Source: Promethearchaeota archaeon
GTDB lineage: Archaea; Asgardarchaeota; Lokiarchaeia; Sigynarchaeales; SOKP01
DNA: 30,099 nt
NCBI GenBank assembly: GCA_030620005.1
Contig: JAUXAJ010000025.1
Span: 1 to 30,099 of the forward strand
Direction of reading: 5' to 3'
This document shows, in pieces, positions 497-28,011 of the stretch. The notes under the pieces are model-generated. The model was not told the origin of the DNA. It did no database searches and saw nothing but the letters and a program-made list of their open reading frames with translations. Positions within the stretch are counted from its first letter, which is position 1, and each line of letters starts with the position of its first letter. Position numbers and translations under genes: made by a program.

Positions 497-2587
497 ATGG
501 GCATTTCGATAAGTCAAGAAAATTTAGAAAAACTTGAGCTTTTAATTGGCAGACAAATTGATTATACTATAATAGCTAAAAAAAAACCTTTTTTTGATCA
601 TACCGAAGACCGTATTAATATTGATTCTAAATTATTAGATAAGATATACCAAGAAATTGTAAAAGAGAATCCATTAATTAATTTTAAAAAAGATATAAGT
701 AAAAAAATCGGTACCGATATATATCTTACTCTGAAATACTCAATGAGTAAAGAAAGCTTTGCAAAATTACAAAAATTATATGGTAAACCCATTCCTTATA
801 AGATAGGGAATTCTGTTCAAAAAAAAATAAAATTAACTGTTAATGAAGATCTCGTAGAAATGATGGCAATAATACTAGGCGATGGTCAACTTCGAGAAAA
901 ACTAAATCCACCAACATACACCGTTGGAATTTCTTTAAACATTGATGACTATGAATATGTAAATTATGTAAGAGATTTAATGATTAAAGTATTTCAATTT
1001 CAAGTCAGCGAAAGTTTAGCAAAAAATAGAAAAAACGCAACAGGTGAAGAAAAAGGATTAGTACTTACTGTTTCTGGTCTGTCTTTAATTAGAGAACTTA
1101 AAGCCTTGGGACTTACTCCGGGAGATAAAGTAAAAAATCAAGTTGGCATACCTTTATGGTTTTTTGATAGTGATAAATTTAAAATCACTTGCTTAAGAGG
1201 ATTGATCGATACTGATGGTTGTATCTCTGTCATGAAAAAAAGAAAATCAATGTATATCTCTTTTATTAATGGCTCTAAACCTTTAGTCGAAGGATTTTGG
1301 AGATTATGTAATTCATTAAACATTAGATCTTCAAATGTACATGGTCCTTATAAAGTAGTAGATCCTAGATCTGGATATATCTCGCACATGTACAGTGTTG
1401 CTATTGGTGCTAAGGAACAAGTTAAAAAATTTCTAGAATTAATTAAACCAAAGAAGTGGGACCTTAGAAAAAAATATATTGGGACTGTATTAATTAGTCT
1501 TAGCGATCCTAACAAAAGTGAGTTAATTGAAAGACAAATTAAATTGGATTTCCCAAAAATAACAGATCGTCATTATTCAAAAAAATATGAAGAATATTTA
1601 GTGAGTTCATGTCAAAAACAGGGATACACCATTAATAAAACAACGATAAATCGAGTGATTACTGATGCCTTAACAATTCAAGTAAGCCAATATTCCCGCG
1701 ATTACGCTGAATATTTAAAAAGAACATACGAAATTTATGGAAGATTTCTTGATATTAGAAAAATCATAGATGAGCAAGGAAATATTCCAATACCTGCCCA
1801 AATTACGGTTACAAACTATTTGAAAGCTTTGTTTGATGAAAAATCCTATAAAAAATATAAAGATGGATACCAAAAATGGTATGATAATAACACATTTATA
1901 AAAACAGAAAATTTTGAAATTGTTTATATAATGTATAAATACAGAGAAGAACTTTGTATAGATATTTGTAGAATTATAAAAAATTTATCTTTTTTCCCTA
2001 ATGAAACTCAAATTTTAAACCAATTAATATATCTTATTAATAATCAAGATTTAAATGGCAATATTAGTCCTGAATTACTAGAAAAATCAAAAAATCAGAA
2101 TGATATTATTGATTATGAAAAAATAGATAATTTTCTTGATGAGGTTAAAGTTTTACGATTTGAACGCTTAGCATATCTACTAAATAATCATGAATATAGC
2201 CAATTTACAAGAAAATTTTTAATGGAACATGTTAAATTTGTCAGAAAAGTTATAACCTTATCTAATTCTAATAAAAAAATTAATATAACACAATCAGCTG
2301 CAGAATACAAATTGCTTAAAGGTCGTCCCAATGTTAGAAAATTGTTAAAAGTTATATTATCTGAAATAAAAAATAATGTTGCTACAGAGAAAAATCAAGA
2401 AGTTAATACAAATCCTAATAAAAAAAATCAAAAAAAGAAAAATACAGTAAAAAAAGGAAGAGTCAATAAAGGGGGTGGTGGATATAATTTTGCTCTCAAT
2501 TATGAAAATTTTTTCGGACCTTATGAAGAGAGCGATTTTGACGACGATGATTCGTTTTTATCACCAAAAGTCAGGGAAACAATTTGA
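497..2587 (+). CDS. LAGLIDADG homing-endonuclease-like protein
   Basis: Main open part (696 aa) of a protein with two LAGLIDADG motifs: LGDG at about residues 127-130 (context MMAIILGDGQL) and LRGLIDTDG at 233-241. The spacing is as expected for a monomeric two-repeat endonuclease or maturase-type domain. Both helices keep the acidic residue that binds catalytic metal in this family. Upstream is a helical N-terminal region of about 110 residues. Downstream is a long Lys/Asn-rich helical region, then a basic linker (KKNQKKKN), a GGGG turn and an acidic tail (DFDDDD). It is a free-standing ORF, not visibly inside a host gene or intein. The true start is probably near 217, and the 3' end may continue to 2720 through another A-run frameshift. 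Whether it is still active, or has become a DNA- or RNA-binding regulator as some free-standing archaeal LAGLIDADG proteins have, cannot be told. Confidence 0.8.
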   Translation: MGISISQENLEKLELLIGRQIDYTIIAKKKPFFDHTEDRINIDSKLLDKIYQEIVKENPLINFKKDISKKIGTDIYLTLKYSMSKESFAKLQKLYGKPIPYKIGNSVQKKIKLTVNEDLVEMMAIILGDGQLREKLNPPTYTVGISLNIDDYEYVNYVRDLMIKVFQFQVSESLAKNRKNATGEEKGLVLTVSGLSLIRELKALGLTPGDKVKNQVGIPLWFFDSDKFKITCLRGLIDTDGCISVMKKRKSMYISFINGSKPLVEGFWRLCNSLNIRSSNVHGPYKVVDPRSGYISHMYSVAIGAKEQVKKFLELIKPKKWDLRKKYIGTVLISLSDPNKSELIERQIKLDFPKITDRHYSKKYEEYLVSSCQKQGYTINKTTINRVITDALTIQVSQYSRDYAEYLKRTYEIYGRFLDIRKIIDEQGNIPIPAQITVTNYLKALFDEKSYKKYKDGYQKWYDNNTFIKTENFEIVYIMYKYREELCIDICRIIKNLSFFPNETQILNQLIYLINNQDLNGNISPELLEKSKNQNDIIDYEKIDNFLDEVKVLRFERLAYLLNNHEYSQFTRKFLMEHVKFVRKVITLSNSNKKINITQSAAEYKLLKGRPNVRKLLKVILSEIKNNVATEKNQEVNTNPNKKNQKKKNTVKKGRVNKGGGGYNFALNYENFFGPYEESDFDDDDSFLSPKVRETI

Positions 2588-2959: not shown

Positions 2960-4896
2960 TTAAATACCTAATTTCTTTCGGTTTGCTTCAATGTGGGCTA
3001 GAATGCCGTCAGCAGCTTCAATTGCATCCATTTCGACATGCATTACTCCGCCAGTTAGATCCTTACAGTCTTCTGTTAAAAGCTTGACCAGATTTGGACC
3101 ACCCGTAACTGTTGGTACTGGATTAACATATGTATAAAGACCAAAAGCTAGGGCAAAAATCGCATCAATCGTCGCCTTCTGCTCCATTGGAACTCACTAA
3201 TCTTGAATCAATTAGTAATATATTCTGGAGCCGCAGCTGCAACTGGTAAATCTGGAATAGGAACGCCTCCAAGAGCCTCTGAGACAGCTCCAAGTAAATC
3301 GGTTAACCTACCCGTATCCGTGCAAGTGCCATAACTTAATACGGGAGGAATGCCTAATTTCTCGCACAACGATTTGAGCCCTGGACCTGCTAGATCTTTC
3401 GCTTCATTACTGCAAAGTCCCGCAACTTGTAATCCCGCATTACCGCATCCCATTGATAAAATTAATAGATCTCTTTTAATTAATTCTTTTGTAATGTTTA
3501 CAGTGTGAACATCTTGACCATTGTCTCTTAGACTTGTACAAGAGACCAATCCCACAATTCCTCTAATTGTGCCGTCTTTAATAGCATCCAGAAGGGGATT
3601 GAGACTCCCTCCAAGAGCTTCTAAAATGCTCTCAGTTGAAAACCCTACAATTGATTCACTCATATCTAATCCCGTGATTGGCTCTATAGATTTTCTACGT
3701 TCTTTAAAATTATCAATGGCCATTTGTAGCAATTGCGCCGCCTGTTCTTCTGCTTTTTCGGGTTTGTAATCAATTCTTTCGTCAATGCCTTCAAAAACAA
3801 CAACTTCAGAAACTGGAATTAGTTTGAACTTGTATCTTTCAGCATATTTTGGGTCAATGGGCATGCAACAATTCATATCGCAAACAAACACATCAATACA
3901 TCCACTTGCTAATATGGCCTCTTGCATGATCCAATTTCCAGTAAATCCATAAAAGACATCATCCATTTCCCATCTTTGTATCATTTCTTGTCCTGTTTCT
4001 ATATTTGCAATTATTCTTAGCCCTTTTGCGCCAACCGACTTTGCTTTTTCTTGCCAATCCTGCTTTCTTGCTAGTAAAACCATGGCAAATCCTAAGAACG
4101 GTTCATGACCATTAGGAACGATGTTTACATAGTCAGGATCTAATACGCCTAAATTAACGCGCATTTTATGTGGTCTTGGGATATTAAACAAAATATCTTG
4201 ACAAAATTCATTAACGATTTGACTTTGATATGCCATCGCTATTCCTAATCTCATCGCTTTAAACGCTAAACTGGCATAATAACCATCAACATTAGTAAGA
4301 CAAGAACTTGTTGAAAACATTATTTCACCATGAAGTCCTCCAGGGAAGATATTTAGTTTTTTCCAAACTTCTTTTCTTTCTGGAGGCGCTAATGCTTCAA
4401 CAATTTTACTTGGTTCGTTAAATGGCCTGTTAAAATCTTCTTTTACAAATTCGCATAAACGAATAGCAATTTCTTTTTCTGATCCCGACGTGTCTAAACC
4501 TAACCGTCCAGCAAAACTTCTTAATTTTTGAGGTTCACTTATTTTAAAGGGTGTTTTTCCTTCTACTGTCGCTATTAAGGTTTTAATGGTTGTTTCTGCG
4601 TGATAATGATAAGTAGATGACCCCATGACATTCCTCAAGAGCATCATTCGCATTGCCATGCCATCAGCGGTCATTCCACATACTCCTCTTTTATCAATCG
4701 AAGCATCTGCGCGACAAGGACCATTTGAACACAAATCACATCGAGCCCCTTTTAGACAAAAAGGGCATCTTTTATCGGGATCTCCACCAAATTCTTGAGC
4801 TTCATATCGATCCCAAATATTTGTCATTCCGTCCTTTTTTATTCTTTCATATACTTTTTGTACTGTTTTGTGAAAAGATATTCTTTCTCCTTCCAT
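2960..4896 (-). CDS. cooS: Carbon monoxide dehydrogenase catalytic subunit, interrupted by one BHB intron
   Basis: Anaerobic Ni-Fe CO dehydrogenase catalytic subunit (CO + H2O to CO2 + 2 e-). Exons on the minus strand are 4896-3220 and 3187-2960, giving 634 aa when the 32-nt intron is removed, the normal family length. ATG 4896 is chosen over TTG 4929 because AAAGGT lies just upstream. By comparison with Carboxydothermus CooS-II (recalled, not aligned by software), visible residues are cluster Cys at 44, 47, 53, 56, 61 and 73, C-cluster ligands His264, Cys343/344, Cys453, Cys484 and Cys525, and the active-site Lys563, which lies in exon 2. Two oddities: the position of C-cluster Cys295 is Glu300 (IETGQE), and the second cluster-D Cys is Arg52. 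Unspliced, exon 1 runs into TGA at 3210-3208. No cooC, cooF or acs genes are adjacent, so this is a lone CooS of unknown partner. Confidence 0.9.
3188..3219 (-). other. 32-nt bulge-helix-bulge intron in cooS
   Basis: On the minus-strand RNA the outer helix GCUCCA/UGGAGC (3231-3226 with 3186-3181, 6 bp, exon-exon) is followed by the central helix GAAU/GUUC (3225-3222 with 3193-3190, one U-G). Bulge 1 is AUA (3221-3219), and the inner hairpin has 8 bp (3218-3211 with 3201-3194, one U-G). Bulge 2 is CAA (3189-3187). Cleavage after the second nucleotide of each bulge removes 3219-3188 and joins codon TAT to ATG (phase 0), giving PEYMEQKA, colinear with the CooS family across its catalytic lysine. 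Both bulges are exactly 3 nt and the central helix exactly 4 bp, the canonical archaeal splicing-endonuclease substrate. The intron carries the in-frame TGA and shifts the frame. Confidence 0.9.
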
Positions 4897-9371: not shown

Positions 9372-10316
9372 ATGAGTAACTATAAATTTAACCAATTTCA
9401 AGGGAGCATAAACACTGATACAATACGTTATATCGCAGACCCGCAACTCAGAAACATCGTTAACGTGTCAATTGCGTTGGCCAGACCTTTACTTGTTAAA
9501 GGAGAACCTGGAAATAAATTTTAAAGCGTTAAAATTTACCAGAACGGGTAAGACCATGCTTGCTCACGCGATTGCGGAATCTTTAAATAAAAGATTGCTC
9601 GTTTGGAATATAAAAAGTACCACTGAAGCGATTGATGGGTATTACATGTATGACACCGTCCAAAGGCTAAGTTTGAGATAATAATAATTTCAAAGGCTAC
9701 ATGATAGTCGCTTCGGGAGTGAAGATCGAGATGTTAACAGTATTCACGATTACATAATGCTCGGTCCTTTAGGAGAGGCTTTTACCTCCGATGAGCAAGT
9801 AGTGCTCTTGTTAGATGAGATCGATAAAGCAGATTGAAATAGACTTTTATTTCAAGCTTAAATATCGAATTTCCGAACGATCTCCTTCAAGAACTCGATG
9901 TAATGGAGTTTTACATCAAAGAAACCAGAGAATTTGTAAAAGCAAAAACTAGACCCATAGTAATCATCACATCAAATAACGAAAAAGAGCTTCCAGACGC
10001 GTTTTTGCGAAGATGCGTGTTTCACTGGATAGAATTTCCATCAAGAGATTTCATGGTCGATATATGCAATCTACATTATCCTGATTTAAAAAAGAACCTT
10101 CTTGATCAGTGTTTAAAACATTTCTACGCGCTTAGAACTATTACAAAACTTAGAAAAATGCCTTCTACTTCAGAACTTCTTGACTGGATCGGAGTATTGC
10201 TAAAGAGTGGGATAACACTTGAGGAATTAAGGAAAGGCGTGCCATTTCTTGGAGTTCTCATCAAGAAAGAGAAAGATTTTGAGATTGCCCTTGAAAAAGT
10301 AAAATTTCCAACCTAA
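9372..10316 (+). CDS. MoxR-type AAA+ ATPase gene with three BHB introns
   Basis: Exons 9372-9513, 9545-9670, 9701-9832 and 9862-10316 join into a 284-aa protein, the normal length for a MoxR/CbbQ/NorQ-type ATPase. Unspliced, the frame stops in every intron, so only disconnected pieces are open. Joined exons restore Walker A (GEPGTGKT, split by intron 1), the conserved VQRLNDSRFG segment (split by intron 2) and Walker B with its follow-on (LLLDEIDKADIEFPND, split by intron 3). Sensor 1 (ITSNNEKELPDAF) and the arginine finger region (LRRC) lie in exon 4. MoxR ATPases remodel or activate client enzymes together with VWA-domain partners, and two such genes follow 38 nt downstream. The flanking codons are intact and the inserts follow splicing rules, which argues against a simple pseudogene. 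Confidence 0.85.
9514..9544 (+). other. 31-nt BHB intron 1 of the moxR-like gene
   Basis: The central helix is CUGG/CCAG (9508-9511 with 9539-9542). Bulge 1 is AAA (9512-9514). The inner hairpin has 10 perfect bp (9515-9524 with 9529-9538, loop AGCG), and bulge 2 is AAC (9543-9545). Cutting after the second bulge nucleotide removes 9514-9544, rebuilds codon A|CG (phase 1) and yields GEPGTGKT. The outer exon-exon helix is almost absent (one C-G pair), so this is a relaxed BHB. An in-frame TAA lies in the intron. Confidence 0.85.
9671..9700 (+). other. 30-nt BHB intron 2 of the moxR-like gene
   Basis: The central helix GGCU/GGCU (9665-9668 with 9695-9698) has two G-C and two G-U pairs. Bulge 1 is AAG (9669-9671). 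The inner hairpin has 8 bp (9672-9679 with 9687-9694, one G-U), and bulge 2 is ACA (9699-9701). Excising 9671-9700 restores codon A|AT (phase 1) and VQRLNDSRFG. The sequence CAAAGGCTA occurs on both sides (9661-9669 and 9691-9699). The outer helix is weak. The intron holds TAA triplets that close the unspliced frame. Confidence 0.75.
9833..9861 (+). other. 29-nt BHB intron 3 of the moxR-like gene
   Basis: A full canonical element. The outer helix is UCGAUA/UAUCGA (9821-9826 with 9863-9868, 6 bp) and the central helix AAGC/GCUU (9827-9830 with 9856-9859, perfect). Bulge 1 is AGA (9831-9833). The inner hairpin has 8 perfect bp (9834-9841 with 9848-9855), and bulge 2 is AAA (9860-9862). Excising 9833-9861 rebuilds codon G|AT (phase 1) and DKADIEFPND just after Walker B. 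At 29 nt it is not a multiple of three and contains an in-frame TGA. Confidence 0.92.
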
Positions 10317-10354: not shown

Positions 10355-11593
10355 ATGTTTGTAGATTTTTTTTATTTCTTAAAGGAGCGATTACCGGTAT
10401 CGATAACAGAATATTTAACCCTGCTTGAAGCTTTAGGGAAGGGCCTTATTAATAACATGGTAGATTTTTATTACATCTCTCGAAGCATCTTATGCAAGAA
10501 CGAACATCTTTTTGACATTTTTGATTGTAGTTTTGGTACTTTTTTCGAAGAGGCATCAATTAAATTTCCGGTAGATATAAGACAAGAAATCTGGAATTGG
10601 TTACAAAAAGACGTGAACGTACTATACCTCTTACAAGAAGTTAAAGAGATGTTTGAAGATTTTGATTTAGAAGCGTTGGAAAGACAATTAGAACAATTAT
10701 TAAAAGAACAGGATAAAGAGCACGACTTCGGAAATAAATGGATTGGGACCCAAGGACAATCGCCATTCGGACACTCTGGACAAAATACCATAGGATTCAG
10801 GTTAGGTAACGATTCAGGCATGCGCAGGGCGATAAGGATTGCTCAAAAACGAATATTTAAAGATTACAGGAAGGATGTCGTCTTAGACACCAGGCAGGTC
10901 AAGATAGCTCTAAAACGACTTCGAAGATTAGACGATATTGGCAATAGGTGCGAACTAAATCTTAAAAAAACAATTGCCGAAACCAGCAAGAATGGCGGTG
11001 AAATTGAATTGGTTTTCGAAAAAAAGAAAAAGAACAACTTGAAACTCTTACTTTTAATGGATGTGGGAGGAACGATGGACCCGTATGTTCATAGGGTAAA
11101 TCTTTTATTTTCTGCCGCCAATAACATGTCGCATTGGAAAGATTTTAAATACTTTTACTTCCACAATTGCATATATAATTTTTTATACGATAATGCTCGA
11201 CGAAATCCAAAAAACGCGCTAGAATTTAACGATTTCCTGAAAAAATACGATAGTTCGTATCGCGTGGTAATTGTAGGCGACCAAACAATGCATCGCAGCG
11301 AATTAAAAAGACCTTACGGTGCGATTTATGACGGAGCAACCAATAAAAAGCCCGGAATTTATTATTTGGAAAGAATTGCCGATCATTTCAAGAAAAACGT
11401 GGTTTGGTTAAGTCCTGAGGCCGATCTATATAACTGGTCAACATGGACGCAATTAATTATAGCACGAATCTTGCCAACTTACCCTTTATCAATTGAAGGG
11501 ATCGAAAAAGCCATGGACTATTTAAGAGTAAGAGGAAAAAATCAATTTACAACAGTGGACATGTTAAAAGGAGTGCCATTAGCGCTATATTGA
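10355..11593 (+). CDS. CoxE-like VWA domain protein, copy 1
   Basis: A 412-aa MoxR partner. The N-terminal helical half (PVSITEYLTLLEAL) matches CoxE/CbbO-like VWA proteins that start with a segment defining the length and placement of helices. A charged linker (residues 115-165) with GTQGQSPFGHSG follows, then the C-terminal VWA domain. The MIDAS motif begins at Asp236 as DVGGT, with Thr where the usual DxGxS has Ser. Such proteins bind Mg2+ and link the AAA+ ring to a client. It begins 38 nt after the moxR-like gene and is probably cotranscribed with it. It is a diverged tandem duplicate of the next gene, with the MIDAS Asp at the same residue number. Confidence 0.85.
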   Translation: MFVDFFYFLKERLPVSITEYLTLLEALGKGLINNMVDFYYISRSILCKNEHLFDIFDCSFGTFFEEASIKFPVDIRQEIWNWLQKDVNVLYLLQEVKEMFEDFDLEALERQLEQLLKEQDKEHDFGNKWIGTQGQSPFGHSGQNTIGFRLGNDSGMRRAIRIAQKRIFKDYRKDVVLDTRQVKIALKRLRRLDDIGNRCELNLKKTIAETSKNGGEIELVFEKKKKNNLKLLLLMDVGGTMDPYVHRVNLLFSAANNMSHWKDFKYFYFHNCIYNFLYDNARRNPKNALEFNDFLKKYDSSYRVVIVGDQTMHRSELKRPYGAIYDGATNKKPGIYYLERIADHFKKNVVWLSPEADLYNWSTWTQLIIARILPTYPLSIEGIEKAMDYLRVRGKNQFTTVDMLKGVPLALY

Positions 11594-11817
11594 AGAATGT
11601 TCAAATATTTAGACTCGTGTACGATCAAATCAATTTGGCAGATTTTATTCCAAACTCTTGATCAACCATTATAACATCATCAGAGACTTGAGCAAAATAA
11701 TAATAATAATATAAACGAAAAATTGAGCAACATATTAATTAAATCCACCAAAAAACTAATATTTATACTTTAATTTTATATTACTAGAAAGAATTAAAGT
11801 TTTCAAGACTGAATATC

Positions 11818-13047
11818 ATGTTCGTAGAATTCTTCTATTACCTTAAAGAGCGCTTGCCAGTATCGATTACAGAATACATGACGTTAATTCAAGCCTTAGA
11901 TAAAGGTCTCATTCATAACATGGTGGAGTTTTATTACATCTCTCGAAGCATATTATGTAAGAACGAACACCACTTCGACATATACGATATCAGCTTCGCT
12001 AATTTCTTCAAAAACGCCTCGCTTAAGTTTCCCGAAGATATCAAGCAAGAAATATGGGACTGGCTGCAAAAAGCCGTGGATTTACCAGAACTGCAAACGG
12101 AATTTCAAGATTTATTAAACTCCTTCGATATAGAGGATTTACAAAGGCAATTCGAAGAATTAATGGCTAGACAGGACGAGGACCACGACACGGGCGATCA
12201 TTGGATTGGAACGCAAGGTACATCGCGATTTGGACATTCTGGCCAAAATCCAATGGGCATGAGGGTTGGTGGCACTGGCGGGATGCGAATGGCCATACAA
12301 ATTGCCCAAAAGCGAATCTTTCAAGACTATAGAAAGGATGTGGTCTTGGACACGAGGCAAATTAAAGTTGCCCTAAAAAAGTTAAAAAAGCTCGACGAGA
12401 TTGGCAAGCAAGACGAACTAAATATCGATAAAACCATTGACGAAACCGCTAAAAACGGTGGAGATATCGATTTGGTGTTCGAAAAACGCAGAAAAAACAA
12501 CGTGAAACTCCTCCTCTTGATGGATGTCGGCGGTTCAATGACGCCCTACGCACACTTGGTTAATCTCCTTTTTTCCGCCGCAAATCAGCTGTCTCACTTC
12601 AAAGATTTTAAATACTATTACTTCCACAATTGCATTTACGAGTCCTTGTATTTTAATGCTCAACGGAATCTGGAAGAATCTATGGAATTTTCCGAACTTT
12701 TGAAAAAATATGACAGCTCTTACAAGGTTATTTTGGTCATGGACCAGGCCATGGCAAGTTTTGAATTGACAGAAAGGTATGGAAGCATTTACTATTACCA
12801 TAGGAACGATATGCCGGGGATCTATTACATGAGAGAACTTGTTAATCATTTTAAAAATAATGTCGTGTGCTTGAATCCAGAAATTATACGCATTGACTGG
12901 CAACCGTGGACGAGGAAAATATTATCTTCATTTATTCCCACATTTAATTTAACTATAGAAGGTATCGAAGAAGCGGTTAAATATCTGAGAAAAGGCGGAA
13001 AAAACATGTATACAACCGTAGAACAACTAAAAGGATTAAAGTATTAA
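11818..13047 (+). CDS. CoxE-like VWA domain protein, copy 2
   Basis: A 409-aa tandem paralogue of the preceding gene along its full length, beginning MFVEFFYYLKERLPVSITEY against MFVDFFYFLKERLPVSITEY. The linker GTQGTSRFGHSGQNPMG is conserved. The MIDAS motif here is canonical, DVGGS at Asp236-Ser240, so this is the copy most likely to bind metal normally. A 224-nt gap with a TATA-like TTTATACTTTAA (11760-11771) suggests its own promoter. It is expected to act with the MoxR-type ATPase; the client is unknown. Confidence 0.88.
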   Translation: MFVEFFYYLKERLPVSITEYMTLIQALDKGLIHNMVEFYYISRSILCKNEHHFDIYDISFANFFKNASLKFPEDIKQEIWDWLQKAVDLPELQTEFQDLLNSFDIEDLQRQFEELMARQDEDHDTGDHWIGTQGTSRFGHSGQNPMGMRVGGTGGMRMAIQIAQKRIFQDYRKDVVLDTRQIKVALKKLKKLDEIGKQDELNIDKTIDETAKNGGDIDLVFEKRRKNNVKLLLLMDVGGSMTPYAHLVNLLFSAANQLSHFKDFKYYYFHNCIYESLYFNAQRNLEESMEFSELLKKYDSSYKVILVMDQAMASFELTERYGSIYYYHRNDMPGIYYMRELVNHFKNNVVCLNPEIIRIDWQPWTRKILSSFIPTFNLTIEGIEEAVKYLRKGGKNMYTTVEQLKGLKY

Positions 13048-21718: not shown

Positions 21719-23341
21719 TCATGTTAGACGCCTTAATATTTTTCCAGGAGCTTTTTTCTTTTGCTTGCCATCAAACACAACGACAATCCCGTTTACAATT
21801 ACATGTTGAATGCCTTCAGGAAGTTGATAAGGATTTTCGTAAGTGGCCTTGTCGTTAACGGTCTCCGGATTAAATATCACGATATCTGCCCAACTTCCTT
21901 CTAATAACAGACCTCTATCTTGTAATCCAAGTCGTTGTGCTGGAAAAGAGGTCATTTTGCGAATAGCTTGTTCCAATGTCATGAGCTTTTCCTCCCGAAC
22001 ATACTTTCCAAGAACTCTAGGATATGTTCCGAAACATCTGGGATGAAATGCTCCAACACTAAATGACGCGGGAATTCCAAATCCATCGGTTCCAACCATC
22101 TGATAACGGCTTGTCATGATTCTTCGGATGTCTTCTTCTCCCATGCTTTCAATTGTTATCATAACTCCTAATTCATTTTCAATTAATAATTTGAAGTAAG
22201 TTTCCCACTCATCAGATAAACCCTTGATTTTTGTGATTTCAGTTATATTTTTTCCTGCGACATCCTTCCACTTTTCCGAACTAACGGATGCGATATACAT
22301 GTTTTTAAATCCCTCGTCTCGAATCCAGTTTTCCCAGCCCTCTATGCCCTCTCTAACATCCTTTTTTATGCGTTCTTGATTCTCTGGATTCTTTATGCGT
22401 CCCATAATTTCTTTGTTTTCGCCCTCACGGACCCAAGGAGGGAGGGATGTAACAAGTCCAGACATTCCACGATTATATGGATATTGATCGCAAGTAACAC
22501 TAACGCCGCGCTCGTTAGCTTCTTCCATTAACCGTGTAGTTTCCCTGCTAGTACCCCAATAAGGTTCGCCGGAGACTTTATGATGAGCGATTTGCCCTCC
22601 AGCACATCCAGATTTCTCAACAATCTCAATAACTTCTTTAACAGCGTCTACAACCGTTTCGCCTTCACCTCGAATATGAGAAAAGTATAATCCATCATGC
22701 TCTGCTACTGTTTTAGTTAATTCGATAAGTTCATCCGTTTTTGAAAAAACTTGGGGTGCATAAATCAATCCCGTGCTCATGCCAAATACTCCTGCTTCCA
22801 TGGCTTCTCTCAAGTAATTTTTCATGCTTTCGAGCTCTTCAGGTGTAGCGGGTCGGTCTTCTTTCCCTTGACCCCCTGCGAAACGCAAGTTGTTATATCC
22901 TACAAAAAAGATTAAATTCGCGGAATTCCGTTTCTTCTCGTTGTAATCTAAATATTCGGCGAACGTGTGATAAGGATAATCAAATTGTCCAAGAACTGGA
23001 TCCAATCCGCTCATCGCTTTTTTGAATTCTTCTTCTTTTCCCTCAGGTATAGGCGCCATTCCATCCCCGCACATCCCTACTACGCTCGTAGTGACTCCTT
23101 GACATACAGTGGATTCCTGGTTTCTACTAATAGGCAATATATAATCTGTATGGGAGTGAATATCTATAAATCCTGGACAGACAATTGAGCCTTCTGCATT
23201 AATTTCCTTTTTAGCATCTTCTGTAATTTTAGGCCTTATCTTCACGATCTTTCCATCTTTAACTCCTATATCGGCTTTATACCATGGATTGCCCGCTCCA
23301 TTAATAATCTTGCCATTTTTGATTAAAATGTCATAAATCAT
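21719..23341 (-). CDS. N-acyl-D-amino-acid deacylase, copy 1
   Basis: A 540-aa amidohydrolase of the D-aminoacylase family, which removes acyl groups from N-acyl-D-amino acids (or related dipeptides). It shows HSHTD (His62 and His64), a Cys in MCGDG (metal-bridging Cys in D-aminoacylase), SHIRGE, AHHK and GTDGFG (catalytic Asp). ATG 23341 is chosen over GTG 23353, as the same alternative exists in copy 2. The paralogue lies 100 nt upstream, with promoter regions that match closely (TATA(C/T)AATTTAAAG about 40 nt before the start). Possible roles include salvage of peptidoglycan or racemised protein remains. Confidence 0.9.
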   Translation of the reverse strand: MIYDILIKNGKIINGAGNPWYKADIGVKDGKIVKIRPKITEDAKKEINAEGSIVCPGFIDIHSHTDYILPISRNQESTVCQGVTTSVVGMCGDGMAPIPEGKEEEFKKAMSGLDPVLGQFDYPYHTFAEYLDYNEKKRNSANLIFFVGYNNLRFAGGQGKEDRPATPEELESMKNYLREAMEAGVFGMSTGLIYAPQVFSKTDELIELTKTVAEHDGLYFSHIRGEGETVVDAVKEVIEIVEKSGCAGGQIAHHKVSGEPYWGTSRETTRLMEEANERGVSVTCDQYPYNRGMSGLVTSLPPWVREGENKEIMGRIKNPENQERIKKDVREGIEGWENWIRDEGFKNMYIASVSSEKWKDVAGKNITEITKIKGLSDEWETYFKLLIENELGVMITIESMGEEDIRRIMTSRYQMVGTDGFGIPASFSVGAFHPRCFGTYPRVLGKYVREEKLMTLEQAIRKMTSFPAQRLGLQDRGLLLEGSWADIVIFNPETVNDKATYENPYQLPEGIQHVIVNGIVVVFDGKQKKKAPGKILRRLT

Positions 23342-23441
23342 TTTAGAAAACACTTAATTTTTTATTCTTTAAATTGTATAAGATGGTATTTTTAAATCTA
23401 TAAAAATTTTTACTTGTTTTAAAAAAAACCATGAATTCATT

Positions 23442-25076
23442 TTAAGTAGGACGCCTTAATACTTTTCCAGGTCGTTTTTTAAGCTGCTTATTATCCTTTA
23501 TTACAAGCATACCATTAACAAACACGTGAGATATGCCTTCTGGGTATTGGTGTGGTTCCGTGAAAGTTGCTTTATCGATGATTGTATTAGGATCGAAAAG
23601 CACGATATCTGCCCAATTTCCTTCCCTTAACAATCCTCTATCTCTTAGCCCTAAGCGTTGAGCTGGAAAAGAAGTCATTCTACGAATTGCATCTTCCAGA
23701 GTTAAAAGTCCCTCTTCGCGAACATATTTTCCTAAGATTCGAGGATAAGTCCCGTAAAAGTGAGGGTGAACAACTCCTAGTTGAGGAATATTTGGGATTC
23801 CAGCGCCGTCAGTTCCAACCATGTGATACCGGCTAGTCATTATTCGACGAATGTCTTCTTCGCCCATGCTTTGAATAGTAATTGCAACCTCACACTTTCC
23901 ATCAACTAACAAGTCGAAAAAAGTTTCCCAGTCGTCTTTTTTACCTTTAATCCTTGTAATTTCTGATATACTCTTACCTTCAATATCTTTCCATTCTTTC
24001 GCTTTAATCATTGATATGTAGATACTTTCAAATCCACTTTCTTTAATCCAACTTTCATAACCTTTGATGCCAGTTTCAATGTCTTTCTTAATTCGTTTTC
24101 GATCTTCATCATTATTTAAGCGCTCTAAGACTTTATTAACGCCTCCCTCTCGCGCCCAAGGTGGGAGTGTCGTGACAAGTCCAGACATTCCACGATTGTA
24201 GGGATACTGATCAAAAGTAACATTAATACCACGAGCGTTCGCTTCTTCGATAAGACGCAGCGAATCCTTGGAGGCACCCCAAAAATTTTTCCCTGCAACT
24301 TTGTGATGGGCCATCTGTCCTCCTATACAGCCAGATTTCTCGACAATTTCAATAAATTCCTTGACAGATTCAATTAATGTTTCTCCTTCGCTTCGAATGT
24401 GTGAGAAATAGAGACCATTGTATTTTGCCACGACTTTTGCCAACTCAATAAGCTCATCGGTTTTTGAAAACAATTGTGGAGCGTAAATCAACCCCGTACT
24501 CATTCCAAAAGCGCCTGATTCCATGGCTTCTGAAATATAATCCTTCATACTTTCAAGCTCTTCAGAGGTTGGTAGACGGTTTTCAAACCCAGCACCCCCG
24601 GCAACCCTTATGTTTTCGTATCCAACAACGCAAACACTATTGGCGGCACACTTTCTTTTTTCTATTTCTGCCATGTACTCTCCAAATGTTCTCCACGAGA
24701 TATCTAAATCAAAATCTTCTGGTATGAATCCGCTGAAAATCTTCCTAAAATCTTCCATTCTTTCGTCAGTTACAGGAGCAAGGCTTTGTCCGCACATGCC
24801 GAGAATGTTTGTTGTTATTCCTTGATGAATGGTTGATTCCACTTTATAAGTCGTCGGAGGAGCCATGGGCATGGCAAAATCAGTATGGGAGTGAATGTCA
24901 ATGAATCCTGGACAAACAATTAATCCCATAGCATTAATTTCCTTTTTAGCGTCTCCACGCAATTTTGATCTTATCTTCAAGATCTTTCCGTCTTTAACTC
25001 CAATATCAGCGCGATACCAAGGATTTCCGGCACCATTAACAATCTTACCGTTCTTAATTAAAATATCATAAATCAT
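23442..25076 (-). CDS. N-acyl-D-amino-acid deacylase, copy 2
   Basis: A 544-aa tandem paralogue of the previous gene. It keeps HSHTD, MCGQS, SHIRSE, AHHK and GTDGAG, so both copies look active. It differs mainly in residues about 70-130 (MAPPTTYKVEST insert and FIPEDFDLDIS), near the entrance of the active site, which suggests a different acyl or amino-acid preference. Both copies carry their own near-identical promoter and start context (TTAAGTGT-TTCTAAAATG, one base differing), so the duplication included regulatory DNA. Confidence 0.9.
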   Translation of the reverse strand: MIYDILIKNGKIVNGAGNPWYRADIGVKDGKILKIRSKLRGDAKKEINAMGLIVCPGFIDIHSHTDFAMPMAPPTTYKVESTIHQGITTNILGMCGQSLAPVTDERMEDFRKIFSGFIPEDFDLDISWRTFGEYMAEIEKRKCAANSVCVVGYENIRVAGGAGFENRLPTSEELESMKDYISEAMESGAFGMSTGLIYAPQLFSKTDELIELAKVVAKYNGLYFSHIRSEGETLIESVKEFIEIVEKSGCIGGQMAHHKVAGKNFWGASKDSLRLIEEANARGINVTFDQYPYNRGMSGLVTTLPPWAREGGVNKVLERLNNDEDRKRIKKDIETGIKGYESWIKESGFESIYISMIKAKEWKDIEGKSISEITRIKGKKDDWETFFDLLVDGKCEVAITIQSMGEEDIRRIMTSRYHMVGTDGAGIPNIPQLGVVHPHFYGTYPRILGKYVREEGLLTLEDAIRRMTSFPAQRLGLRDRGLLREGNWADIVLFDPNTIIDKATFTEPHQYPEGISHVFVNGMLVIKDNKQLKKRPGKVLRRPT

Positions 25077-25166
25077 TTTAGAATACACTTAATTTTTTAT
25101 TCTTTAAATTATATAAGTTAATCTTTAGAATATTTAGAATTTTAAAAAATTAAGCCATCTTAAAAC

Positions 25167-25922: not shown

Positions 25923-26951
25923 TTACCATCGGTGGTCAAATCTTTCGGCAAAACCAAATAAGCGATCTACATGAATTTTCTCGCCGTTGTCTAGAATCAC
26001 ATTACCACTAAAGTATCCAAAAACTTGGTGTCCGGTGTTTTTTAAAATTAAAACATTCAAATTCTCGCGACTATCGAATACTGGATCAAGCGTCATCTCA
26101 AAACGACCATCACTACTCGTGAATTTCCAAGGCTTCATGACATCCTTTTTATCCATGTGAAAAGTGACGTGCTCGATTTTATGACCCTTGTTATTTAAAA
26201 AGAGCATGTTTTTGCTTGCAACTGAATCAATCCCAAACCCGTAATCAATGTTAAACCCAAGCATTTTACCATTAACTTTCCCATATGCTGCTCCCCAATA
26301 CCACAAAGTTTTATATGGAAATACCCCTCTACTCCAATCAATTATACCATAACTGGAGTTTTTGTCTGAAAATTCGTATTTTTCACTTCCAAAAGTAAAC
26401 GAGCCATTTGCGGTCATGCCTACGATTTTTTGAGCGAAAACAAAATGTTTTTTCTTTTTAAAAGGAACCACATTAACAATAGTATCTTGATTTTTTGAAA
26501 TCCTGAGCGTAATTTTTCCCTGAATCCCTTTCCCCTTATCAAACTTTGGATAGTCAAATGTCAATATTCGATTATTGTCCTTTATTTCAAAAGATATATT
26601 CATTCCTTTTTTAGAAAAGAAAACATCTCCAGAATTAGAATTAGGCGGCATGTTTAGAGAGCCTTTAGTAAACAACATGTTTCCTTGGGCAGCTTTCTTT
26701 ACTTTATTTTTAAAATCTAAAAAAGATATCGTTCCCATCCCAAAGTACCCTACATCTGCAATAATTAAGACCAAAGCAAATTCTTCATTAATCATTTCGT
26801 AGCAGTCCCAGTCTTTTATTCTCAATTTACCGGCTTTTACACGTTCGATGTTTCGATTCAGAATCATTTTTCGCGCCCATCCTACTTGTTTTAAATTCCC
26901 TTTTTCGTCAAATAAATCTGATGGTTCGGTAATTTCGTTTTGTTTACTCAT
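25923..26951 (-). CDS. DUF2804 family protein, copy 1
   Basis: A 342-aa DUF2804 protein. The start EITEPSDLFDEKGNL, the GWARKMIL segment and the C-terminal RLFGFAERFDHRW are family hallmarks. The fold is predicted to be beta-rich and to bind lipid- or carotenoid-like molecules, from resemblance to AttH/CrtC-type proteins; that is inference. The function is unknown and there is no signal peptide. The ribosome site GTGAGGAAAG lies upstream, 34 nt after the other copy, so the two are in one operon. Confidence 0.8.
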   Translation of the reverse strand: MSKQNEITEPSDLFDEKGNLKQVGWARKMILNRNIERVKAGKLRIKDWDCYEMINEEFALVLIIADVGYFGMGTISFLDFKNKVKKAAQGNMLFTKGSLNMPPNSNSGDVFFSKKGMNISFEIKDNNRILTFDYPKFDKGKGIQGKITLRISKNQDTIVNVVPFKKKKHFVFAQKIVGMTANGSFTFGSEKYEFSDKNSSYGIIDWSRGVFPYKTLWYWGAAYGKVNGKMLGFNIDYGFGIDSVASKNMLFLNNKGHKIEHVTFHMDKKDVMKPWKFTSSDGRFEMTLDPVFDSRENLNVLILKNTGHQVFGYFSGNVILDNGEKIHVDRLFGFAERFDHRW

Positions 26952-26985
26952 TTTTTAACTTTCCTCACTTTTTTCATTTCTTATT

Positions 26986-28011
26986 TTACCATCGCCAATA
27001 AATATCTTCAGCGTGGCCAAGCATTTCTTTAATCTGAATTTTTTCGCCATTATCTAATACTATAGTTCCGCTGTATAACCCATGAATTAACGACGAATTT
27101 GAATATATAACTCCAAAATTTATTTTATCCCTGTTTGGAATGAGTGGATTTAAAGTCATGTTAAACCTATCGTCATTGCTGGTAAATTTCCAAGGTTTTT
27201 CAGGATCCCGATTCTCGTGGTGGAAGGTTACTTCGTCAATCTTATTAGCCTTCCCATCGTAAAATATGACATTTTCTGTATGGGTTGAAAGATCACCAAA
27301 TCCATAACCAATATTGAAGGCAATTGGTACACCATCTACCAATCCACAAGCAGAACCCCACAACCAGTGAGTCTTGTAAGGCCATATTCCACGCCCCCAA
27401 TCCATGAGACCGAAAGAGGTCTCTTTTTTAAAGTTGTATGATTTTTCACCGATTTGAATCTTTCCTTCTGCTGGCATCATGTTTATCTTATGATTGTAAT
27501 AAAATAGCCTAGGGTCTTCTTTATAACCTGTAACTACTACTGTATTATCAAATTTTGGATCATCTTTGAGTGTAATAGTTCCTTTTATCCCTTTATCTAA
27601 GAAGGTGGGATCTTCAAGCGAAAGAATTCGTTTACCCTTGCGAGTCGAAATTGTAGCTTTAAATTTTTTTGTAGGAAATTCAATATCGCTGTCTTCCAAA
27701 GAACTCAATGGAAGGACCCTTGACTTAGTAAAAAACTTGAAAAACCCTTTGTCATGCCTTTCTTTTTTTTTAAAATCAAGCCATACATAGCTCATTTGCG
27801 TTAAATAGCCAATATCGCCGATCGTCATTTGAAAACCAAAATCTTTATTCAAAATCGAATAATGATCCCATTCTTTAATTCTAGTCCATTTCTTGCCAAT
27901 CTTTTCTTTATTGTACTTTAGGATTGGTTTTCTTGCCCACCCTTTTTGGAGCAAGTGCCCCTTTTCGTCAAATAAATCAGAAGGTTCAGTGATTTCGTTT
28001 TGATTTCCCAT
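26986..28011 (-). CDS. DUF2804 family protein, copy 2
   Basis: A 341-aa tandem paralogue of the previous gene. It has the same start EITEPSDLFDEKG, GWARKPIL, SFGLMDWGRGIWPYKTHWLWG (here MDWGRG against IDWSRG) and the WRW end. It is first in the two-gene operon, with AGAGGAAC as ribosome site. Conserved Trp/Gly-rich strands suggest a ligand-binding beta-barrel. Two non-identical copies side by side suggest a heteromer or two substrates. Confidence 0.8.
   Translation of the reverse strand: MGNQNEITEPSDLFDEKGHLLQKGWARKPILKYNKEKIGKKWTRIKEWDHYSILNKDFGFQMTIGDIGYLTQMSYVWLDFKKKERHDKGFFKFFTKSRVLPLSSLEDSDIEFPTKKFKATISTRKGKRILSLEDPTFLDKGIKGTITLKDDPKFDNTVVVTGYKEDPRLFYYNHKINMMPAEGKIQIGEKSYNFKKETSFGLMDWGRGIWPYKTHWLWGSACGLVDGVPIAFNIGYGFGDLSTHTENVIFYDGKANKIDEVTFHHENRDPEKPWKFTSNDDRFNMTLNPLIPNRDKINFGVIYSNSSLIHGLYSGTIVLDNGEKIQIKEMLGHAEDIYWRW

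What the first reader, a model, noticed from the sequence alone, without database searches (positions are those of the whole stretch)
9372..10316. A MoxR ATPase gene interrupted by three 29-31 nt BHB introns
Seen in the sequence: three insertions with in-frame stops break the gene. Each folds with a 4-bp central helix, two 3-nt bulges and an 8-10 bp internal hairpin. Cutting after the second base of each bulge restores GEPGTGKT, VQRLNDSRFG and DKADIEFPND and gives a 284-aa protein of normal length. Known: archaeal tRNA splicing endonuclease cleaves BHB motifs, and few protein-coding BHB introns have been reported (e.g. cbf5 in Crenarchaeota). Inferred: mRNA splicing by the tRNA endonuclease in this Asgard archaeon. 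All three introns are phase 1 and intron 3 is a fully canonical element.
Basis: partly seen in the sequence, partly recalled or inferred. Interest (0 to 1): 0.97.

Follow-up and report, generated by a model that had tools for sequence, protein, structure and literature searches.

The report
Asgard ATPase gene with three introns
A Lokiarchaeal ATPase gene is broken by three inserts of about 30 bases that fold like the introns of archaeal transfer-RNA genes, sit at sites that other Lokiarchaeal genomes also have interrupted, and are predicted to be cut out of its messenger RNA, a kind of splicing that the papers we could search report for hardly any archaeal protein gene.

Summary
Removing 9514-9544, 9671-9700 and 9833-9861 (31, 30, 29 nt) gives one 284-aa MoxR-like ATPase, up to 88% identical to intact Lokiarchaeal proteins. 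Each insert forms a bulge-helix-bulge (BHB) element cut exactly where the conserved peptide is restored. Comparison is the strongest evidence: of 64 genomes of the class with the gene, 5 carry inserts at the same three sites (one has all three, four have one), the helices co-vary, and the exons are under purifying selection. Similar inserts sit at one site in the partner vWA gene (3 of 65 genomes) and one in a nearby HMG-CoA-synthase-like gene (3 of 56): 16 introns, 5 sites, 3 genes, 12 genomes. Four of four relatives tested have two EndA genes, five of five RtcB. Pseudogene, bypassing and assembly error fit badly. A LAGLIDADG endonuclease-like gene lies in the window; its only close relatives in 83 genomes stand at the intron-bearing MoxR-vWA locus of two others, suggesting trans-acting homing (p about 0.02; untested). 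No RNA data were available and the window's own genome is not held. A known kind (cbf5-type mRNA introns), new in lineage, gene, number per gene and recurrence.

The parts
9372..9513 (+). exon 1 of the MoxR-like ATPase gene (start codon to the first base of the Thr codon in GEPG|TGKT, Walker A)
   Evidence: splice join gives a 284-aa protein; uninterrupted here in most relatives
9514..9544 (+). intron 1, 31 nt; inner hairpin 9515-9524/9529-9538; central helix 9508-9511 (exon) with 9539-9542 (intron); cuts AA^A and AA^C
   Evidence: same site interrupted in L025 and L029, with 3 compensatory pairs
9545..9670 (+). exon 2
9671..9700 (+). intron 2, 30 nt; inner hairpin 9672-9679/9687-9694; central helix 9665-9668 with 9695-9698; cuts AA^G and AC^A; only one register gives RLNDSRF
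   Evidence: same site in L020 and L029
9701..9832 (+). exon 3 (contains the Walker B region LLLDEIDKA)
9833..9861 (+). intron 3, 29 nt, canonical BHB; outer helix 9821-9826/9863-9868; central 9827-9830/9856-9859; inner 9834-9841/9848-9855; cuts AG^A and AA^A
   Evidence: site interrupted 2 nt further on in L028, L029, L068
9862..10316 (+). exon 4 to the stop codon
10355..11593 (+). vWA (CoxE-like) gene, first copy, uninterrupted here; the homologous family carries a BHB intron in three other genomes
   Evidence: Pfam PF05762
11818..13047 (+). vWA (CoxE-like) gene, second copy, uninterrupted here
   Evidence: Pfam PF05762
497..2587 (+). LAGLIDADG endonuclease-like protein (696 aa), candidate trans-acting homing nuclease; its link to the introns is a hypothesis
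   Evidence: Pfam PF14528; close relatives only beside MoxR in L025 and L026

Best explanation
The three inserts are predicted bulge-helix-bulge introns, which the cell's tRNA-splicing endonuclease (EndA) would cut out of the MoxR messenger RNA and whose flanking exons the RtcB ligase would then join into one 284-codon reading frame. Shown: the exons, the BHB folds at registers that restore the family peptide, interruption of the same sites in other Lokiarchaeal genomes, helix co-variation, purifying selection on exons, no second match at E 1e-20 in the five interrupted genomes searched, and EndA-family (two genes) and RtcB genes in related genomes. Inferred: transcription through the introns, cleavage, ligation, and that the window's own genome has the enzymes. 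The exon strand of each central helix is formed by codons of the ATPase itself, so the intron would read its position from the coding sequence.
For: Protein level: spliced product 284 aa, up to 88% identical over full length to intact proteins; AAA_5 over its Pfam cut-off. Same sites in relatives: site 1 in window, L025, L029; site 2 in window, L020, L029; site 3 in window, L028, L029, L068. Class survey: 64 of 83 genomes have a match, 5 interrupted (G001, G002, G003, G004, G078), none of the five with another match at E 1e-20. Structure: 8 of 10 MoxR introns have a 4-of-4 central helix, the other two 3 of 4, each at a register that restores the peptide. Co-variation: site 1 has 3 pairs changed on both sides and 95.6% of cells paired against 24-49% when slid (only three sequences, 40 of 500 shuffles as high). 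At site 2 the exon arm differs by synonymous codons (AGG CTA / AGA TTA) and the intron arm follows (GGCT / GATC). Selection: L028 vs its nearest intronless row L051 dN 0.053, dS 1.19; L025 vs L022 dN 0.030, dS 0.37. Other genes: vWA intron at DAAM|ASWEL in G040, G052, G073; HMG-CoA-synthase-like intron in G029, G030, G031. Machinery: two PF01974 genes in 4 of 4 genomes, RtcB in 5 of 5. tRNA genes: 11 of 23 RF00005 matches in G001 are 98-115 nt; L148 has a 29-nt intron at the anticodon-loop position with a 7-bp outer helix.
Against: No RNA evidence. The window's genome is not held, so EndA, RtcB and a possible intact paralog in that organism are untested. Six of 16 introns have only 3 of 4 central pairs; for the HMGCS intron and the L026 vWA intron the folding energy is no better than shuffles (z -0.59 and -0.23), and the pairing of L026 is reached by 368 of 20,000 shuffles, that of HMGCS by 10; L229 and L230 were not shuffled. 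Registers were chosen among those that restore the peptide, so for introns with several such registers the agreement is partly selected. BHB scans of 0.8 Mb of G001 show no excess over other bulge geometries, nor does a scan with weak coding filter (92 against 87 and 84), so such introns are rare. Three of six intron-bearing MoxR rows have long end branches (window 0.20, L029 0.23, L068 0.29; the others 0.10, 0.085, 0.035; median of all rows 0.059), which could mean weaker constraint. Of 20 long tRNA genes inspected my scanner found no BHB in 8, and many of the other candidates are weak.
Confidence: 0.93

Rival explanations
1. The gene is a pseudogene broken by small palindromic insertions that merely fold into hairpins.
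For: In-frame stops in all three inserts; three of six intron-bearing rows have longer branches than the median row.
Against: Exons keep their frame in all six interrupted MoxR genes; dN/dS is low against intronless relatives; no second match at E 1e-20 in the five interrupted genomes searched; in all 16 introns a BHB-like fold with at least 3 of 4 central pairs lies at a register that restores the peptide (L018 was not scored by itself, its insert reads the same as that of L017).
Confidence: 0.03
2. Ribosomes bypass the inserts (programmed translational hopping, as with phage T4 gene 60 or yeast mitochondrial byps; both recalled) and the RNA is never cut.
For: Inserts of hopping size with hairpins; at window site 2 the take-off codon CTA equals the landing triplet.
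Against: Take-off and landing triplets differ in 11 of 12 introns tested at their BHB register. In L025 site 1 and window site 2 only one register restores the family peptide, and its junction codon does not stand in the DNA: reading the DNA triplet instead would give A for T and H for N.
Confidence: 0.015
3. The inserts are removed from DNA, or are assembly errors.
For: The related sequences are metagenome assemblies by their titles.
Against: Same sites with different, structured sequences in separate assemblies; three MAGs share the same HMGCS insert.
Confidence: 0.01
4. A self-splicing ribozyme or a spliceosomal-type intron.
For: None beyond the presence of introns.
Against: 29-33 nt is far too short for group I or II introns (established knowledge); no Rfam family in the window at gathering score.
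Confidence: 0.005

Closest known systems
cbf5 pre-mRNA introns of Desulfurococcales and Sulfolobales (PMC2738675: part 1 of 6 of the text and passages)
   Same: Protein gene; BHB or relaxed BHB; 16-44 nt introns in its Table 1; cut between second and third bulge residues; patchy presence with losses; placed after the first base of the catalytic Asp codon; hetero-oligomeric EndA.
   Different: Different genes (MoxR-like, vWA, HMGCS-like); Lokiarchaeal hosts; up to three introns in one gene; the same sites occupied or empty in scattered lineages.
HVO_1309 5'-UTR BHB of Haloferax volcanii (PMC7714728, passages)
   Same: BHB in an mRNA cut by EndA, shown in vivo and in vitro there.
   Different: In the untranslated leader, not interrupting a reading frame. 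That 2020 paper calls cbf5 the only other reported case.
Archaeal tRNA introns at non-canonical positions, Thermoproteales intron transposition (PMC4090602, passages)
   Same: Short BHB introns gained at new sites.
   Different: tRNA hosts.
Putative 12-bp introns in protein genes of an archaeal virus (cited in PMC2738675, passage)
   Same: Short inserts in protein genes.
   Different: 12 bp, splicing not shown, virus host; I saw only the citation.
Collaborative homing of introns and adjacent free-standing endonucleases in phages (PMC10448857, passages)
   Same: Endonuclease gene beside, not inside, the interrupted gene.
   Different: Phage introns there; BHB introns in archaea here, and no cleavage data.

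Membership tests
Archaeal BHB intron | central 4-bp helix joining 5' exon and intron | tested here: met
   4 of 4 in the three window introns; over all 16 introns ten 4/4 and six 3/4
Archaeal BHB intron | two 3-nt bulges cut after the second nucleotide at the exon borders | tested here: met
   registers enumerated against the family peptide
Archaeal BHB intron | outer exon-exon helix (canonical hBHBh') | tested here: inconclusive
   6 bp in intron 3, 1 bp in introns 1 and 2: relaxed type for two of three
Archaeal BHB intron | EndA able to cut relaxed BHB, i.e. (alpha beta)2 or epsilon2 type (PMC6379350, passages) | tested here: inconclusive
   two PF01974 genes in each of 4 related genomes; one keeps Y-H-K residues by eye, the other lacks the His; assembly inferred, and not testable in the window's own genome
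Archaeal BHB intron | spliced RNA observed | not testable with these tools
   no transcript data held
cbf5-type mRNA intron | located in the cbf5 gene | tested here: not met
Translational bypassing element | matching take-off and landing codons | tested here: not met
   1 of 12 introns
Group I / group II intron | catalytic core / Rfam match | tested here: not met
   no Rfam match in window at gathering score; 29-31 nt
Collaborative homing locus | endonuclease gene beside the interrupted gene | tested here: inconclusive
   3 of 9 intron loci vs 0 of 21 intronless loci, one-sided p 0.02, loci related by descent; no match at 1e-6 in intron carriers G001, G002, G004, G031, G078
Collaborative homing locus | cleaves the intronless target site | not testable with these tools
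   needs an enzyme assay

The most novel reading that the evidence does not exclude
Lokiarchaea carry a mobile family of roughly 30-nt BHB introns that invade conserved codons of protein genes, above all the MoxR-vWA operon, helped by separate LAGLIDADG homing endonucleases that cut the intronless alleles, so that EndA-RtcB splicing of mRNA is a regular part of gene expression in these Asgard archaea.
Probability: 0.3. Interest if true: 0.95.

Novelty: new variant of a known kind. Interest (0 to 1): 0.88.

Why it matters
In the papers found, mRNA introns of this type in archaea are reported for cbf5 in Crenarchaeota and one haloarchaeal leader. Here Asgard archaea, the lineage held to be closest to eukaryotes (recalled), show protein genes with up to three tRNA-type introns, at five sites in three genes, present or absent in close relatives. 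That makes intron gain, loss and spread in Asgard archaea directly testable, shows that ORF-based gene finding truncates such genes (the window gene appears as a 137-aa fragment), and offers a defined substrate set for Lokiarchaeal EndA.

Tried and rejected
BHB-only genome scans are swamped by AT-rich hairpins: no excess over controls, so they are not evidence of further introns. Homology screens: in the larger one 1,735 ORF queries against 2.37 Mb, 1,027 gene-like places covered by a non-self query, 409 of them in the G001 and G003 blocks not chosen for MoxR; only MoxR, vWA and HMGCS-like genes came up as intron cases. Two further split hits (L219, L196) have a stop and a new ATG and look like a fusion in one genome and two genes in the other (my reading, no family search); other in-frame-stop hits were gene ends or weak. 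Window 3188-3219 passes the strict screen but lies between the CO-dehydrogenase stop and a new ATG: rejected. L004 1239-1273 passes too and was not followed. The AlphaFold model of the LAGLIDADG protein is poor (pLDDT 41.8) and was not used; no PDB chain matches its profile at E 0.01. In one search two rows (L029 and L068 site 3) were entered at a wrong register; redone. In the tree rows under 225 aa (3 of 62) and identical DNA copies were dropped.

Full report
What is there. The sequence at 9372-10316 encodes a MoxR-like AAA+ ATPase broken by three inserts of 31, 30 and 29 nt, each with in-frame stops. The ORF list shows only the last 137 codons. Joining the four exons gives 284 aa with the Walker A motif GEPGTGKT; AAA_5 is over its Pfam cut-off. 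The closest listed proteins are up to 88% identical over the whole length; where a source names them they are mostly MoxR-like or AAA family ATPases of Lokiarchaeal or other Promethearchaeota (Asgard) assemblies. The gene nests among Lokiarchaeal rows in a tree of 59 proteins. Two vWA CoxE-like genes follow it, the usual partner of MoxR (recalled).

Fold and register. For the inserts I listed the junctions that restore the family peptide and asked whether one of them is a BHB. Intron 1: CTGG/CCAG, AA^A / AA^C, 10-bp hairpin. Intron 2: GGCT/GGCT with two G-U pairs, AA^G / AC^A, 8 bp; its junction is unique. Intron 3: AAGC/GCTT, AG^A / AA^A, 8 bp, plus a 6-bp exon-exon helix. With exons fixed, dinucleotide-shuffled inserts reach the same central and inner pairing in 0, 1 and 1 of 20,000 trials.

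The same sites in other genomes. A scan of species genomes returned 29 loci, all titled Lokiarchaeota or Lokiarchaeia. Four had inserts: L029 at all three sites, L025 at site 1, L020 at site 2, L028 at site 3. A class survey found a match in 64 of 83 genomes; five are interrupted, the fifth being G078/L068 at site 3, and the rows of the other 59 show no internal stop, some of them partial or distant. At site 3 the window boundary is 2 nt upstream of that in L028, L029 and L068; I count this as one site. Of the ten MoxR introns eight have a 4-of-4 central helix; L029 and L068 at site 3 have 3 of 4. Shuffles reaching both measures for the other MoxR introns: L025 0, L029 site 1 28, L020 3, L029 site 2 7, L028 0, L029 site 3 0, L068 1, of 20,000 each.

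Co-variation and selection. Site-1 introns of window, L025 and L029 are similar in sequence (z 5.3-7.0 by shuffling), and three inner pairs have changed on both sides (three sequences only, 40 of 500 shuffles as high). At site 2 the exon arm comes from AGG CTA in the window and AGA TTA in L020 and L029, the same amino acids, and the intron arm changes to match. Against near intronless rows dN/dS is about 0.04 (L028-L051), 0.08 (L025-L022) and 0.11 (L025-L021); the window's own comparisons have saturated dS with dN near 0.1. No second match at E 1e-20 was found in the five interrupted genomes.

Other genes. A split-hit screen found a 29-nt insert in the vWA gene of L026, beside an intact MoxR. 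A class survey and follow-up found the same vWA site interrupted in 3 of 65 genomes with a match (29, 30 and 33 nt), each with a BHB-like register that restores DAAMASWEL; central pairs 3, 4 and 4 of 4 (L026, L230, L229), inner 5, 7 and 5 of 8. A further stop in G045 lies in a truncated second copy without an insert. An HMG-CoA-synthase-like gene (best NCBIfam hit PRK04262, below its cut-off) upstream of MoxR holds the same 30-nt insert in three related genomes (3 of 56), inner helix 8/8, central 3/4. In all: 16 introns of 29-33 nt, 5 sites, 3 genes, 11 of 83 genomes plus the window; no genome was seen with introns in two of the three genes. These genes are neighbours, partly because the loci were chosen around MoxR; 409 tested places in two blocks of other genome DNA gave no further case apart from the G001 MoxR gene itself.

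Machinery. Four of four related genomes have two EndA-family genes, one with the Y-H-K residues and one without the His as I read the sequences, and five of five have RtcB. A review read in passages states that (alpha beta)2 and epsilon2 enzymes are the ones that cut relaxed BHB motifs efficiently (PMC6379350). In G001, 11 of 23 tRNA matches are 98-115 nt long; L148 shows a clear 29-nt canonical-position intron and L155 a 23-nt one, while 8 of 20 inspected gave no BHB by my scanner.

Gain, loss or spread. On the gene tree the sites need at least 3, 2 and 4 changes; a single gain would need 13, 5 and 6 losses. Either long retention with many losses or repeated arrival at the same codons is required. 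The window encodes a 696-aa protein with a LAGLIDADG domain at 497-2587. In about 2.4 Mb of fetched DNA its only relatives are about 100 bp upstream of the intron-bearing MoxR in L025 and directly behind MoxR, 2.5 kb before the intron-bearing vWA gene, in L026. Over 83 genomes only these two (G003, G040) score above 900 bits; weaker relatives (at most 321 bits) bring the total to 29 of 83 genomes, among them intron carriers G029, G030, G052 and G073, on contigs other than those of the interrupted genes; intron carriers G001, G002, G004, G031 and G078 have none. Three of 9 intron loci against 0 of 21 intronless loci gives a one-sided p of about 0.02, with loci related by descent. This fits collaborative homing as described for phages (PMC10448857, passages) but also a passenger or a relic; it is a hypothesis.

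Rivals. Bypassing fails in 11 of 12 introns by the codon-match rule, and two introns with a unique register have a junction codon that is absent from the DNA. Pseudogene and assembly error do not explain the shared sites, registers and selection.

Literature. Searches for BHB with mRNA and archaea, Asgard with BHB, cbf5 with splicing endonuclease, Lokiarchae with splicing endonuclease, pre-mRNA splicing with BHB, Asgard with cbf5, and Asgard with introns in protein-coding (listings, plus passages of eight papers and part 1 of 6 of PMC2738675) gave no report that I saw of BHB introns in Asgard protein genes. PMC7714728 (2020, passages) calls cbf5 the only other mRNA example. Subscription papers and preprints were not searchable.

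Verdict. Observation confirmed; interpretation supported at 0.93; a new variant of a known kind.

Noticed in passing
L186 (G081 contig C151) 7000-8500: A cbf5 gene with a textbook 32-nt BHB intron (outer GGGA/TCCC, central CACT/AGTG, AG^A and CA^A) after the first base of the Asp codon in GTLDPKVTG, the place PMC2738675 gives for crenarchaeal cbf5 introns. Five close relatives looked at are listed as proteins starting at or after VTGVLPV, one from a source naming Candidatus Jorda... The contig's host is uncertain.
   Followed up: partly
window 497-2587; L025 8013-9896; L026 10865-12631: LAGLIDADG endonuclease-like genes; close members found only near the MoxR-vWA locus of genomes with an intron there.
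   Followed up: partly
L026 15104-16554; L229; L230: vWA CoxE-like genes with a BHB-like intron at one shared site (29, 33, 30 nt).
   Followed up: yes
L012 2087-2116, L017 6906-6935, L018: The same 30-nt BHB-like intron in an HMG-CoA-synthase-like gene of three related genomes.
   Followed up: yes
gene tree of MoxR rows: Three of six intron-bearing genes have long end branches (0.20-0.29; median of all rows 0.059); cause unknown.
   Followed up: no
L004 1239-1273: BHB-like element with coding-like flanks that passes the strict screen, unexplained.
   Followed up: no
window 3188-3219: Strong BHB-like hairpin between the CO-dehydrogenase stop and the next ATG; possibly a terminator.
   Followed up: no
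window 10355-13047, 21719-25088, 25923-28011: Three tandem pairs of similar genes: vWA pair (Pfam for both), amidohydrolase pair and DUF2804 pair (Pfam run on one of each, the other by its similar ORF).
   Followed up: no
L028 10895-13135: A 746-aa protein with DUF4379 and CapR zinc-finger domains directly behind the intron-bearing MoxR, where L026 has its LAGLIDADG gene.
   Followed up: no
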